A stretch of DNA of 64,000 bases from Sulfurihydrogenibium subterraneum DSM 15120 (GTDB taxonomy: Bacteria > Aquificota > Aquificia > Aquificales > Hydrogenothermaceae). A program made the position numbers and the translations under genes. Under the pieces are notes generated by a model. It worked only from the letters and a program-made list of their open reading frames with translations, had not been told where the DNA came from and did no database searches. The stretch is from NCBI RefSeq assembly GCF_000619805.1, contig NZ_JHUV01000010.1, positions 62,001-126,000 of the forward strand, in the 5' to 3' direction. Shown here piece by piece: positions 24,401 through 51,977 of this stretch. The first letter of the stretch is position 1. Every line of letters begins with the position of its first letter.

Positions 24401-24510
24401 TAGGTGGACTGATAACAGCATTACCACTTAGTCTTTTCGTAATACCTATAATGTACATAATCATTGACAAAATTAGATTTTTAGTAAAAAAGGTGGATAA
24501 AAACAGTTGA
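21460..24510 (+). CDS. RND-family efflux pump, hydrophobe/amphiphile exporter type
   Basis: Inner-membrane proton-driven exporter of the HAE-1 group, 1016 residues, within the usual range of about 1020-1050. Twelve membrane segments and two large periplasmic loops are evident. The proton relay Asp-Asp is at 399-400 in GLVIDDAIVVMESIYRR. In the TM10 region, the Lys of AcrB (K940) is matched by GLVTRDSVLFIERI, where an Arg is nearby. An AAGGAG site precedes the ATG. The adaptor and channel genes are divergent, so one regulator can control all three. Substrates are unknown. Confidence 0.95.
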   Translation: MYRFFIRRPITTWMFILSFIIAGLYALKYIPVDRNPDVDFPVVSISTTYAGANPYVIDTNITRKIEDELATISGIEAINSSSYTGVSRITVTFDLDKDIDIAAQEVRDAVNRAQRQFPPNTDPPVVRKVDTSLAPIMAILLHGYADYGTLSYLSDKVLKREFERVQGVGEVDLGGFRDYVMWVRIDPLKLAGFKLTPKDVINALTSNNVEIPSGRIDSKDREYVLRVYGKGRSPQEIENIIIKNNVRIKDVGRAEFTFDEKRGLVRFKALDSKEAEPGIAIIIYKQSKENTVAVAKRVIEKMNELNKQLPQGLRLDINYDASTFIERSVNDALHEIVLGSILTAFMVFLFLGSFKMTFIPSMAIPVSILGAITALFFLGQSLNTFTLLGLAVAVGLVIDDAIVVMESIYRRNEEGLKSVEAAEKGTRVVIFALLASTASLIAIFVPVLFLKSVIGKFFFGFALTLIVAIAISYIVSLSFTPMISARLVEVGEKNIFQRAYDKFENWFDKALRWSLNNKVIVLAISLATVIIGFKLVSITPKEFTPTVDEGRFLVRFETPTGSSFDFVDKKARELEKIVSSNPYVLRYGVAFGEGIAGRPTVNGGIFFITLKDRSTGRPHQKVIMDQFRKAFAKVSDVRAIIDIPSAVGPRSGRSADIMYVIKGTDLNELAKVSSQLESKLRQTPGYTDIDTDLRINQPEVRIEIDRDKALNLGVSVEDIANTLNFLFGKYKIGTYEKGSESYNFYMKADESFLTSFDNLSKIYVRAKDGSLVPLSSLITYQLAPGYNVINRYNRQYAVTLYANVTGGKSVGEGVVEVENMIKQVLPAGYTYEIGGQTKEFKRTFDYLGIALLVAIIAVYMVLASLFESLIHPFTVLLTLPFAVSGVFGLILLTGQTLNVTSYIGIILLIGLVTRDSVLFIERIIQLKKEGLDTLSAILQARKERLRPILMTTLTIFASLIPVSLGLTEGSEMRQPLAIAVIGGLITALPLSLFVIPIMYIIIDKIRFLVKKVDKNS

Positions 24511-24562
24511 CAAAAACAATAAAATCATATAAAAAACTATACAAAACTATAAAGAGCTAAAG

Positions 24563-26101
24563 ATGATAACCCTACACTGCAAACTAACTTTCGAAAATGA
24601 TAAAGACAGACAAACATTAGAAGACCTAATGAGAAAATTTTCATCTTGCTATAGATACGCATTTAATAGACTACTTGAAGGACACACAAGAAAAGACCTT
24701 AAAAAACATCTACAAAAACTATTTAACCTAAACTCAAGATACTGCGACGATGCAATATTCAAAGCACAAAGCCTCATAAACCTATGTAAAGAAACAGGAC
24801 AAAACCCACAAAAAGTTATATTCGGCGGTAAAAGACTATTTCAGCTCCTTAAAAACAAACACCTAAACGGAAAAGACAGAGAAAAAATAAAACAAAAATG
24901 GCAAGAAAGAAGAAAAGCATGTCTACACTCAAGAGGAGACAAAACAAAAAAAGGCAATCTCAACACAAGAATAGAGTTTGAAAAAGACAGTCTAATACTT
25001 AGGATAAATGTAGGAGAAAAAAACTGGATAAAAGCAAAAATAAAAAGGACAGTAAACAGACCAAGCGATAAATGGACAAACTTTATAGCAGATTTACTAC
25101 AAGCAGAAAAAACAAAAGAATACTTCCCATACTCAGTAGAGATAAGAAAGATAAACGATAACTTCTATGCATTCATAAGCTACGAAGAAGAATTACAAAA
25201 AGAACCGATTATAACAAAAGAAAACGGAGTAATAGGAATAGACGTAAATGCAAGCCCATTTCACATAGCAATAGCAACAGTGAAAACAGATGGCAACCTA
25301 CAAGCAGTAGAAAGAATATCACTACATAAGTTAATAAACAAGACAAAAAATCAAAGAGAATACCTATCTTGGCAGATAGCACATCAGATTGTAGAGTTAG
25401 CCATAATACAAGACAAAGCAATAGCGATAGAGAGATTAAAAGAGATAAAAAAAGGAAACAAAGGAGATGGAAATAAAAAGCTGAGAAAAAGATTACAACA
25501 ATGGATATACAAAGGGATACTTGAGAAGATAAAAGCACTTGCTAAAAGAAAACAAATAGAGGTAATAGAAGTAAACCCAGCATATACATCAGTAATAGGG
25601 TCATTAAAGTATGCACCGCAGTATAACTTAGACAAAGACACAGCAGGATCATTTGTAATAGGAAGAAAAGCATTAGGATATAAAGAAAGTTTGCCAAAGA
25701 ATTACGAAAAACTAATAACAGACAAAGAATATTTAAACTTTGCGATAGAGAGACTACAAGAAGAAAAACAAAAAACACAAGAAAGATTAAAAGAAGAGAA
25801 AAACCAATACAAGAAAAAACCACTCAAAAGCAAGATAGATGAATTGAATAAGCAATTAAAAATAATACAAAGCCTTTACAGTGAGCCACAGACCCAAGAA
25901 TTTGTCAACCTGAGGAAGGAACAGATGAGGGGCTTGTATTGGGCAAGCTACAAACTGTGGCAAGTTGTAAAGGTAGCCCTTGCTATCCCTATTCTTGGTA
26001 AGTCTCTTAACAGAGATTTATCACCCTTAAAGCCAATACTGGTAAATGGGGAGTGGGATAGGGTAGCGAGTAAATCGTGTTTCAAAACCAATTTAGCATA
26101 A
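24563..26101 (+). CDS. TnpB-related RuvC-fold nuclease without zinc ribbon
   Basis: A 512-residue protein of the IS605 OrfB/TnpB superfamily, in the longer TnpB-related branch. The RuvC centre looks complete: Asp227 in GVIGIDVNASP, Glu290 in AIAIERLKEI, and Asp357/Asp359 in NLDKDTAGSFVIGRKALG. The CxxC...CxxC zinc ribbon that normally sits between the second and third motifs of TnpB is absent; the stretch reads VNPAYTSVIGSLKYAPQYN. TnpB proteins are RNA-guided DNA nucleases; that activity here is inference. The last codons fall within the downstream inverted repeat. Codons are dominated by ACA, ATA, CAA and AAA. The start follows a weak AGAG site. Confidence 0.85.
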   Translation: MITLHCKLTFENDKDRQTLEDLMRKFSSCYRYAFNRLLEGHTRKDLKKHLQKLFNLNSRYCDDAIFKAQSLINLCKETGQNPQKVIFGGKRLFQLLKNKHLNGKDREKIKQKWQERRKACLHSRGDKTKKGNLNTRIEFEKDSLILRINVGEKNWIKAKIKRTVNRPSDKWTNFIADLLQAEKTKEYFPYSVEIRKINDNFYAFISYEEELQKEPIITKENGVIGIDVNASPFHIAIATVKTDGNLQAVERISLHKLINKTKNQREYLSWQIAHQIVELAIIQDKAIAIERLKEIKKGNKGDGNKKLRKRLQQWIYKGILEKIKALAKRKQIEVIEVNPAYTSVIGSLKYAPQYNLDKDTAGSFVIGRKALGYKESLPKNYEKLITDKEYLNFAIERLQEEKQKTQERLKEEKNQYKKKPLKSKIDELNKQLKIIQSLYSEPQTQEFVNLRKEQMRGLYWASYKLWQVVKVALAIPILGKSLNRDLSPLKPILVNGEWDRVASKSCFKTNLA

Positions 26102-26122
26102 GACGATTTGAAACACGATTTA
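26071..26122 (+). repeat. Perfect 16-bp inverted repeat at the tnpB 3' end
   Basis: TAAATCGTGTTTCAAA at 26071-26086 is exactly inverted at 26107-26122, with a 20-nt loop. The tnpB-like stop codon (26099-26101) lies in the loop, so the last ten codons or so come from the repeat. There is no T-run after it, so it is not a simple terminator. It may be a transposition hairpin, the 5' end of the guide RNA, or a transcription/processing signal. Confidence 0.85.
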
Positions 26123-26235
26123 GGGTTAGCTCCTGTTTCTTGGGACAGGGGCTATGGTGGGAGCAAAATACCGCCAGCTGGGGAGAGCTCCCATCTGAAG
26201 AAGGCGGAATACAAATACCCCAGCCCAGAGTGTTA
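26123..26235 (+). ncRNA. Candidate TnpB guide RNA (omega-RNA-like) scaffold with interlocking stems
   Basis: A GC-rich block in very AT-rich DNA. Stem 1: 26128-26136 with 26145-26153 (9 bp, one G-U). Stem A: 26156-26164 with 26187-26195 (9 bp, one G-U). Stem B: 26171-26175 with 26203-26207 (CCGCC/GGCGG). Stem C: 26177-26183 with 26218-26224 (GCTGGGG/CCCCAGC, perfect). A, B and C open in that order and close in that order, so all three cross each other as a compact pseudoknot. Position at the 3' end of a tnpB-like gene is where guide RNAs of TnpB lie. Transcript limits are unknown. Confidence 0.6.
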
Positions 26236-26268
26236 GTTTTATACACTTTGGATAACCAGGTATAAACC

Positions 26269-27432
26269 ATGCACGATTTTGAATTTCACAACCCAACTAA
26301 GATAATATTTGGAAGAGGAAAAGAAAACCTTATAGGTAAAGTGTTAAAGGAAGATGGTATTAAAAAAGTATTGTTTGTTTACGGACAGTCTTCCATAAAA
26401 AAAACTGGCTTATACGATAGAGTTGTAAACAGTCTTAAGGAGAACGCAGTAGATTTTGTAGAACACGGTGGAGTAAAACCTAACCCTGTTTTATCCCACA
26501 CAGGGGAAGGAATAGAGAAGGCAAAGAGGGAAAAAGTAGATGCAATTCTATCTGTAGGTGGCGGGTCGGTTTTAGACGAGGGTAAAGCTATAGCAGTAGG
26601 AGCTGTAGCAGATAAAGATGTATGGGCGTTTTTTAAAGGAGAGCCTATAACAAACGCTTTACCAAACTATACTATCCTTACGTTAGCAGCAACTGGAAGT
26701 GAGATGAACGGTTATGCAGTTATAACAAACGAAGAAACACAGGAAAAGTTGTCTATATCTTCAATTTTGATATATCCAAAAGTATCAATTCTTAATCCAG
26801 AATTAACCTTTACAGTATCTCCACAGTATCAAGCTTATGCAGCTGTAGATGCGATAGCACACACTATAGAGTGGTACTTTACCTGCACTGTTTGTCCTAA
26901 CTTACAAAATAGACTTGTTGAAAGTATAGTTAAAACTGTGATGGAAACTACAGAAAAAATACTTGAAAACCCACAAGACTACAATGCCAGAGCTGAGTTT
27001 ATGTGGGCTGCCACTCTTGCACTTAACGGCACAACGAGGACAGGTTATGCAGGAGGTGTTTACGTAAACCACATGATTGCTCACTCTCTTGGAGCTCTTT
27101 ACGACTTACCTCACGGGGCTTGTTTATCTATTGTAATTCCTGCTTGGATGTGGTGGTACAAAGATAAAAATCCAAGTCAGTTTGAAAGATTTGCAAAAGA
27201 AATCTTTGGATTAAACAACAAAGAAGAAGGAATTAAAGCATTAAAAAGATGGTTTAAAAAGATAGGATCTCCAGTAGCTCTTCAAGATGCAAACATACCT
27301 TCATCTGATATAGATAAGATAGCAAACCACGTTTACCACACAACAGCAGTTCTTTGGGGATTAGATAAAGTCTACACAGTAGATAAGATAAAAGAGATTT
27401 TATACCTTGCATTAAGGAGTAATGTAGAGTGA
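26269..27432 (+). CDS. Iron-containing alcohol dehydrogenase
   Basis: NAD(P)-dependent group III alcohol dehydrogenase of the BdhA/YqhD type, 387 residues. The coenzyme loop GGGSVLDEGKAIA is at about 98-110. The metal ligands sit in AAVDAIAHTIEWY (Asp and His), NHMIAHSLGALYDLPHGACLS (two His). A butanol- or aldehyde-reducing role fits the subgroup; the substrate is not determined. An AGG lies 8 nt before the ATG. It overlaps the TetR gene by 4 bp and so leads the regulator-exporter operon. The structured RNA block ends just upstream. Confidence 0.92.
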   Translation: MHDFEFHNPTKIIFGRGKENLIGKVLKEDGIKKVLFVYGQSSIKKTGLYDRVVNSLKENAVDFVEHGGVKPNPVLSHTGEGIEKAKREKVDAILSVGGGSVLDEGKAIAVGAVADKDVWAFFKGEPITNALPNYTILTLAATGSEMNGYAVITNEETQEKLSISSILIYPKVSILNPELTFTVSPQYQAYAAVDAIAHTIEWYFTCTVCPNLQNRLVESIVKTVMETTEKILENPQDYNARAEFMWAATLALNGTTRTGYAGGVYVNHMIAHSLGALYDLPHGACLSIVIPAWMWWYKDKNPSQFERFAKEIFGLNNKEEGIKALKRWFKKIGSPVALQDANIPSSDIDKIANHVYHTTAVLWGLDKVYTVDKIKEILYLALRSNVE

Positions 27433-50370: not shown

Positions 50371-50466
50371 AATTTTTTACCTCTTTATTTTGTATTTATG
50401 ACTTTTTACATATAAATTAACTTGAAACATTTATAACATAGTTATATATTTATTTGCAACAAGTAC

Positions 50467-50556
50467 CGCGGGGGTGGTTATCCGTTTTATGGATAGCCTG
50501 AGAGTATACCCCTTGAACCTGACGCAGGTAATCCTGCCGTAGGGAAGCGGGCGTGG
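50467..50556 (+). promoter_or_regulatory. TPP riboswitch aptamer
   Basis: The conserved thi-box is clear: CGGGGGTG opening, CTGAGA at about 50498-50503, ACCCCTTGAACCTGA, then CAGGTAATCCTGCCGTAGGGAAGCGGG. It binds thiamine pyrophosphate and controls thiC 65 bp downstream through a hairpin that covers the ribosome binding site. Confidence 0.96.
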
Positions 50557-50557
50557 A

Positions 50558-51977
<1,420 letters not shown>

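What the first reader, a model, noticed from the sequence alone, without database searches (positions are those of the whole stretch)
24563..26268. TnpB-like nuclease without zinc ribbon next to an interlocking GC-rich RNA scaffold
The sequence shows a tnpB-like gene with an apparently intact RuvC centre (Asp227, Glu290, Asp357/359) but no CxxC...CxxC ribbon. It is followed by a GC-rich block whose three stems (26156-26164/26187-26195, 26171-26175/26203-26207, 26177-26183/26218-26224) all cross one another. TnpB proteins are known to be guided by RNAs from the 3' end of their elements, and pseudoknots occur in such RNAs. That this pair forms a guided nuclease of a divergent branch, perhaps domesticated because tnpA is missing, is inference.
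Basis: partly seen in the sequence, partly recalled or inferred. Interest (0 to 1): 0.85.

Follow-up and report, generated by a model that had tools for sequence, protein, structure and literature searches.

The report
Jumping gene that targets ribosome-binding sites
This is a small mobile DNA element carrying a likely RNA-guided cutting enzyme and its guide RNA; in these heat-loving bacteria it inserts into the ribosome-binding site just before genes, and its knotted guide-RNA scaffold also occurs by itself, without the enzyme, just before housekeeping genes in many relatives.

Summary
In detail: the three stems are at the stated coordinates, cross one another and are real. In 26 copies 98.4% of pair cells form, with many compensatory changes in stems A and C. 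The 512-aa protein keeps Asp227/Glu290/Asp359 and has no zinc ribbon. The block is the 3' scaffold (omegaRNA) of an IS607-family element: every copy compared has it, nearly all end in CCAGG, where unrelated flank (the guide) begins. Some relatives keep an IS607 tnpA; the window copy has lost it. It is a mobile-element copy, not evidently domesticated.

Two things go beyond the finding. (1) All twelve insertion sites tested have an empty orthologue reading GGAGG at the insertion point (19 of 20 orthologues), 5-12 nt before a start codon: the target is the Shine-Dalgarno sequence. 31 of 34 right ends lie 1-12 nt before a start codon; 22% of genomic GGAGG motifs do. (2) The same triple pseudoknot occurs without tnpB in 40 Aquificota genomes, 28 times in one; 61 of 62 checked end at a start codon, and no Rfam family matches. 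These look like miniature omegaRNA elements, some kept as 5' leaders. Nuclease activity and leader function are untested.

The parts
24492..24496 (+). Left flank GGTGG, the drifted Shine-Dalgarno/TAM of the insertion site (GGAGG in the sister genome's empty site)
   Evidence: empty orthologue L085 reads aaaaagggagg|tgtagaagATG
24497..26260 (+). The mobile element: IS607-family, tnpA lost, tnpB plus omegaRNA (1764 bp)
   Evidence: copies share sequence between these ends only; flanks differ
24497..24562 (+). Left end (ATAAAAACAGTTGACA...); it supplies the last codons and stop (TGA 24508-24510) of the upstream RND permease gene. Full elements have tnpA here
24563..26101 (+). tnpB-like gene, 512 aa, RuvC D227/E290/D359, no zinc ribbon; in-frame TAA at 26099-26101 where most relatives stay open into the omegaRNA
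26132..26149 (+). omegaRNA hairpin P1 (26132-26136 with 26145-26149)
   Evidence: 100% paired, two pairs with compensatory changes
26156..26195 (+). Stem A of the triple pseudoknot (26156-26164 with 26187-26195)
   Evidence: 8 of 9 pairs with changes on both sides
26171..26207 (+). Stem B (26171-26175 CCGCC with 26203-26207 GGCGG)
   Evidence: invariant; outer pair CG in 49 and GC in 12 stand-alone copies
26177..26224 (+). Stem C (26177-26183 with 26218-26224); a conserved A-rich linker AATACAAATA lies between the 3' strands of B and C
   Evidence: 6 of 7 pairs with changes on both sides
26225..26251 (+). Terminal hairpin P5 (26225-26233 with 26243-26251)
   Evidence: 97.4% paired; also seen in Thermus relatives, by eye
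26256..26260 (+). Right end CCAGG; GG is the presumed IS607 crossover dinucleotide and part of the new ribosome-binding site of the next gene
26261..26280 (+). Predicted guide (about 20 nt; length inferred), running across the start codon (26269) of the Fe-alcohol dehydrogenase gene
   Evidence: guide position by analogy with ISFba1 and ISXfa1 (PMC11061315, PMC10711439)
26269..27432 (+). Host gene whose ribosome-binding site was split: iron-containing alcohol dehydrogenase

Best explanation
The locus is a tnpA-less copy of an IS607-family element that encodes a ribbon-less TnpB and, at its right end, the omegaRNA scaffold: hairpin P1, three mutually crossing stems A/B/C, hairpin P5 and ACCAGG. 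Shown by sequence: these ends, the linkage of scaffold and gene in every full copy compared, an IS607 tnpA in some relatives, and insertion directly after GGAGG, which in these low-GC genomes mostly means the Shine-Dalgarno sequence of a gene. Inferred: the serine recombinase TnpA crosses over at GG. TnpB binds the right-end transcript, scaffold plus about 20 nt of downstream flank as guide; with GGAGG as TAM it cuts the empty ribosome-binding site left in a sister chromosome, so that repair copies the element back. The element's own CCAGG, at the same distance from the start codon, becomes the replacement (weaker) ribosome-binding site, which lets insertions before essential genes be tolerated. 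Internal deletions give miniature elements (about 0.14-0.5 kb: left end, omegaRNA, right end) that lie at the same kind of site; some have been retained as structured 5' leaders (nap-like gene, rpoA and others).
For: Block present in every full copy compared; 34 distinct right ends, nearly all ...CCAGG| followed by unrelated DNA. Covariation of the crossing stems. IS607 transposase directly upstream in G012 and G019 (224 bits, cut-off 110). For 12 insertion sites, 20 orthologous sites in sister genomes were read: 19 have GGAGG at the insertion point (alignment offset at most 1-2 nt); the exception, L086 (adh in G035), reads aagtaggaag|taggaaaaATG. 31 of 34 right ends lie 1-12 nt before a start codon against 83/380 GGAGG motifs overall and 66/152 noncoding ones. 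tnpB is under purifying selection, dN/dS 0.13-0.36. GGAGG precedes the left end in 3 of 4 Thermus copies, in a phage contig (L136) and at the four left ends found among Aquificaceae loci. IS607 TnpBs with TAM AGGAG are known active nucleases (PMC11061315); ISXfa1 crosses over at GG (PMC10711439). Stand-alone copies: 61/62 end at a start codon against 11% of random positions, their structure covaries, and some have both ends (L048, L112, L113, L196, L198; L215).
Against: No activity, transcript or cleavage data. The window copy is single in its genome, has a drifted TAM (GGTGG), an early stop and no matching tnpA in its genome, so it may be inactive. The AlphaFold model is only moderate (pLDDT 71.6, pTM 0.49); its best structural match is a Cas12f1, with low TM-scores and no TnpB among the top 50. 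Origin of the stand-alone leaders from the element is inferred: many lack a recognisable left end, and capture of a host leader by the element is not excluded.
Confidence: 0.88

Rival explanations
1. Host leader captured: the A/B/C pseudoknot is originally a host 5'-leader RNA of Aquificota (a cis-regulatory or mRNA-stabilising element) that an IS607 TnpB element picked up as its scaffold, so the stand-alone copies are ancestral and not derived.
For: Thermus and viral-contig relatives L134/L137 show P1 and P5 but no A/B/C by eye, and two Aquificaceae copies also lack A/B/C, so A/B/C behaves as a module. 40 genomes have the RNA but no tnpB of this family. nap-like leaders are conserved across 12 species of two genera.
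Against: Orthologues of leader-bearing G091 genes in sister genomes mostly have a plain GGAGG ribosome-binding site and no leader. Several stand-alone copies keep element ends. A phage copy whose protein is 46% identical to the window's has A/B/C inside the element.
Confidence: 0.2
2. Domesticated RNA-guided regulator: as in TldR, this TnpB has been taken over by the host to bind the start region of the downstream gene and regulate it.
For: Single copy in the window genome; the guide spans a start codon.
Against: RuvC residues intact; multicopy in sister species at different sites; the window's site is empty in a sister genome.
Confidence: 0.04
3. The block is conserved only as the C-terminal coding part of tnpB, and the stems are a by-product.
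For: The reading frame stays open through the block in most copies checked.
Against: Compensatory changes follow the stems; stand-alone copies without the gene keep the structure; the window copy has a stop before the block and keeps every stem.
Confidence: 0.02

Closest known systems
IS607-family TnpB with RAGATH-18-derived reRNA (ISFba1, Cell Res 2024, PMC11061315)
   Same: IS607 family, AG-rich TAM at the left end (AGGAG or GAGGG there, GGAGG inferred here), right-end RNA with hairpins and pseudoknots, guide from the right flank
   Different: About 390 aa there against 512 aa here; no Rfam match here, RAGATH-18 included; three mutually crossing stems here; the terms ribosome, start codon and downstream gene do not occur in that paper
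ISXfa1 TnpB (NAR 2023, PMC10711439)
   Same: IS607 crossover at GG; the right-flanking nucleotide belongs to the RNA scaffold; G-rich TAM (GGG)
   Different: Studied there in connection with the Fanzor lineage; no ribbon-less branch or start-codon targeting was found in the passages read
NCBI 'IS200/IS605 family accessory protein TnpB-related protein' (TIGR01766 with TIGR01765), e.g. Thermus thermophilus plasmid copies
   Same: Same protein family (about 41% identical), no zinc ribbon in those aligned, P5 and CCAGG right end, GGAGG at the left end of three of four
   Different: A/B/C pseudoknot not seen in Thermus; the Thermus copies read do not sit before a start codon
TldR (nuclease-dead TnpB regulators)
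   Same: TnpB-type protein with right-end-type guide RNA
   Different: RuvC intact here; no evidence that the host has fixed the protein

Membership tests
IS607 family element | IS607-type serine-recombinase TnpA | tested here: met
   Met for the family (NF033518, 224 bits, cut-off 110, directly upstream of tnpB in G012 and G019); absent from the window copy and its genome
IS607 family element | Insertion at a GG dinucleotide without longer target-site duplication | tested here: met
   Empty sites GGAGG|flank in sister genomes, element between GGAGG and flank
TnpB RNA-guided nuclease | RuvC D-E-D triad | tested here: met
   D227, E290, D359 invariant in 13 relatives
TnpB RNA-guided nuclease | Zinc ribbon between RuvC-II and RuvC-III (usual, not universal) | tested here: not met
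   No cysteine in that stretch, nor a CxxC pair in the aligned relatives
TnpB RNA-guided nuclease | Right-end structured RNA followed by flank as guide | tested here: met
   By sequence and covariation only; no transcript data
TnpB RNA-guided nuclease | Guided cleavage of DNA next to a TAM | not testable with these tools
   Needs biochemistry; TAM inferred as GGAGG from insertion sites
TnpB RNA-guided nuclease | Over the NCBIfam guided_TnpB cut-off | tested here: not met
   62.8 bits against a cut-off of 100, E 3.4e-17
RAGATH-18 reRNA / any Rfam family | Covariance-model match | tested here: not met
   Only a TPP riboswitch elsewhere in the window at gathering score; chance-level hits at relaxed threshold; none in 11 stand-alone loci
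TldR | Loss of RuvC catalytic residues | tested here: not met
   Residues intact

The most novel reading that the evidence does not exclude
A guide-RNA scaffold of a transposon nuclease has become a large family of 5'-leader RNAs in one bacterial lineage: miniature omegaRNA elements seeded by insertion into Shine-Dalgarno sequences now control translation or mRNA stability of housekeeping genes (28 in one 1.5-Mb genome without tnpB of this family), recognised by a common trans factor or acting as a common structural leader.
Probability: 0.35. Interest if true: 0.9.

Novelty: new variant of a known kind. Interest (0 to 1): 0.7.

Why it matters
It shows a TnpB element whose target motif is the ribosome-binding site itself, so the guide is the start of a gene and the element supplies a substitute ribosome-binding site: a simple explanation of how a nuclease-armed transposon can sit before genes such as guaB, adk, trpS, lexA, ftsH, hslU and rpsM in compact genomes. 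It links omegaRNA, so far seen mainly as a nuclease guide, to stand-alone 5' leaders with a triple pseudoknot that no Rfam family describes, in many Aquificota genomes. That makes it testable whether guide RNAs of transposons become cis-regulatory RNAs. A ribbon-less, thermophilic TnpB with a G-rich TAM is also of practical interest.

Tried and rejected
Rfam at gathering and relaxed thresholds: no family. PDB sequence search: one weak Cas12f1 hit. The genome-contig scan found one relative only, so the work moved to the genome search. A strict DNA pattern of the core found nothing in viral contigs, although a protein search finds one phage copy (L136). A Python parser for A/B/C was too strict (7 hits) and was replaced by model-based alignment. 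In alignment A8 (nap-like leaders) the apparent changes in stem A are mostly register shifts of four rows, so I use A8 only as evidence of conservation. Literature: a genome-wide Aquificales ncRNA survey (PMC4227106) does not describe this motif in the sections read; the paper library is open-access only and supplements were not read, so absence of a report is not proof. The second DNA match at 26071-26122 is a local inverted repeat, not a second copy.

Full report
What was checked. The ORF 24563-26101 codes for 512 aa and belongs to the TnpB-related proteins (TIGR01765, TIGR01766, guided_TnpB below cut-off). D227, E290 and D359 are invariant in 13 relatives down to about 41% identity; D357 is not. 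There is no cysteine between E290 and D359. The AlphaFold model is moderate (pLDDT 71.6, pTM 0.49) and its best PDB match is Cas12f1 (8hr5, E 9.5e-8), with low TM-scores.

The block. The window genome holds one copy, but sister genomes hold many: five full copies in G034, several in G036, G038 and G039, and single or few copies in other genera. In every full copy compared the block lies behind tnpB, and nearly all of the 34 distinct right ends read CCAGG, after which unrelated DNA follows. On an alignment of 26 copies that was not fitted to any structure, the three crossing stems plus hairpins P1 and P5 form in 98.4% of cells (shuffles 87.1 +/- 0.6; slid structures 32-51%), with 118 doubly changed cells against 33.7. 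Stem A differs almost completely in sequence between groups yet pairs nearly throughout, and stem C changes as well (GCTGGGG/CCCCAGC, GTCAGGG/CCCTGAC, GCAGACC/GGTCTGC). A phage contig (L136), whose protein is 46% identical to the window's in alignment A3, has its own version of stem A. Stem B is invariant among these copies, which by itself says nothing; in the stand-alone copies its outer pair switches between C-G (49) and G-C (12).

Ends and target. Comparing occupied sites with orthologues in sister genomes gives the insertion point. For example guaB: empty ...caacaggagg|tttttagtcttgc, occupied ...caacaggagg|TTAAAAACAG...TTTACCAGG|tttttagtcttgc. Twelve occupied sites were compared with 20 orthologues; 19 have GGAGG at the insertion point (alignment offset at most 1-2 nt), and one (L086, adh in G035) reads aagtaggaag|taggaaaaATG instead. 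Downstream genes are, by their translations, adh, leuC, trpS, ftsH, metE, adk, rpsM, guaB, hslU, lexA and two others. 31 of 34 right ends lie 1-12 nt before a start codon; of 380 GGAGG motifs in 464 kb only 83 do, and 66 of the 152 noncoding ones (start-codon calls are mechanical). So both target choice and selection against disruptive insertions are likely at work. In GC-rich Thermus three of four copies read also follow GGAGG, but not before start codons, which says that the motif, not the start codon, is what is recognised. For the window copy the left flank has drifted to GGTGG while the sister's empty site is GGGAGG; the element's left end supplies the last codons and stop of the RND permease gene (24508-24510), and its right end lies 8 nt before the ATG of the alcohol dehydrogenase gene.

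Which family. In G012 and G019 an IS607 transposase (224 bits, cut-off 110) lies directly before tnpB. In the window's genus only G036 has a full IS607 tnpA, 41% identical and elsewhere in its genome. G034's copies carry what looks like the first codons of tnpA joined to tnpB (by eye), which reads as an internal deletion. dN/dS of tnpB is 0.13-0.36, so the protein has been under selection.

Stand-alone RNAs. A covariance model built from the 26 copies (with P1, A and P5 pairs only) finds hits in 78 of 136 Aquificota genomes, while tnpB of this family at E <= 1e-20 is in 44; comparing the lists, 38 have both, 40 the RNA only and 6 (G092-G097) tnpB only. One genome, G091, has 28 hits and no tnpB of this family; it has five other TnpB-like loci. 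In 62 stand-alone hits, stems B and C, which the model does not contain as pairs, form in 100% and 99.0% of cells; over the whole structure 468 cells are doubly changed against 123.5 in shuffles. 61 of 62 end within -6 to +15 nt of a start codon of an ORF of at least 60 codons, against 11% of random positions. By translation the genes look mostly like housekeeping genes (nuoB, hfq, rpsT, rpmF, rpsK, rpoA, rho, ndk, ilvC, ftsH, glyA, infC and others). Orthologues in sister genomes mostly have an ordinary GGAGG ribosome-binding site without the leader (glyA in G069 and ftsH in G093 do not show it, and the porB row was not framed on its start). Some stand-alone copies have recognisable left and right ends (L048, L112, L113, L196, L198, about 0.3-0.5 kb; L215, about 0.14 kb). 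A nap-like leader is kept nearly unchanged in 12 species of two genera while the sequence upstream varies. No Rfam family matches.

How it most likely works. Shown: element ends, target motif, RNA structure, linkage, IS607 kinship. From the literature: IS607 TnpBs cut DNA with AG-rich TAMs guided by right-end RNAs (PMC11061315), IS607 crosses over at GG and the flanking nucleotide joins the scaffold (PMC10711439), and TnpB can process its own mRNA into the guide RNA (PMC10278001, title and abstract only). Inferred: the same for this ribbon-less branch, with GGAGG as TAM and the first ~20 nt around the start codon as guide; the right end's AGG acting as a substitute ribosome-binding site; miniature derivatives acting as guides in trans where tnpB is present, and surviving as structured leaders where it is not. 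Whether the leaders regulate anything is open.

Limits. Many genomes are fragmented, so absence of tnpB in some is uncertain. In model-fitted alignments (A7, A8) pair counts for A and P5 lean towards the model and their columns may be out of register between rows; A1 does not have that problem.

Noticed in passing
G091 loci L208, L211, L215, L219, L222, L224, L226, L228, L230, L232, L234-L251: 28 stand-alone triple-pseudoknot RNAs in one 1.5-Mb genome; cores at metE (L228), hfq (L230) and rpsT (L232) look nearly identical by eye although flanks differ, which suggests recent copying or gene conversion
   Followed up: partly
L176 (G000:C1:13802-13925): The window's own genome has one more, weak copy (27 bits) just before rpoA; similar rpoA leaders occur in G036, G038 and G014
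   Followed up: partly
L136, IMGVR_UViG_3300022514_000030: A 172-kb viral contig carries the element, inserted after GGAGG 7 nt before an ATG
   Followed up: partly
L170, L172 (G086, G082) and Thermus L081-L084: Element copies whose right end has P5 and CCAGG but no visible A/B/C pseudoknot: A/B/C looks like a removable module
   Followed up: partly
window 26071-26122: Inverted repeat (AAATCGTGTTTCAAA / TTTGAAACACGATTT) just before the omegaRNA, with the window's premature stop inside it; part of it is shared with G034
   Followed up: no
window 50460-50563: TPP riboswitch (62.4 bits)
   Followed up: no
window genome G000: Further TnpB-like loci of other clades elsewhere in the genome (seven places outside the window element)
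   Followed up: no
L198 (G065:C10:39410-39546): Stand-alone copy with both ends before a gene that, by its N-terminus, may be a type III CRISPR (cmr/csm) gene
   Followed up: no
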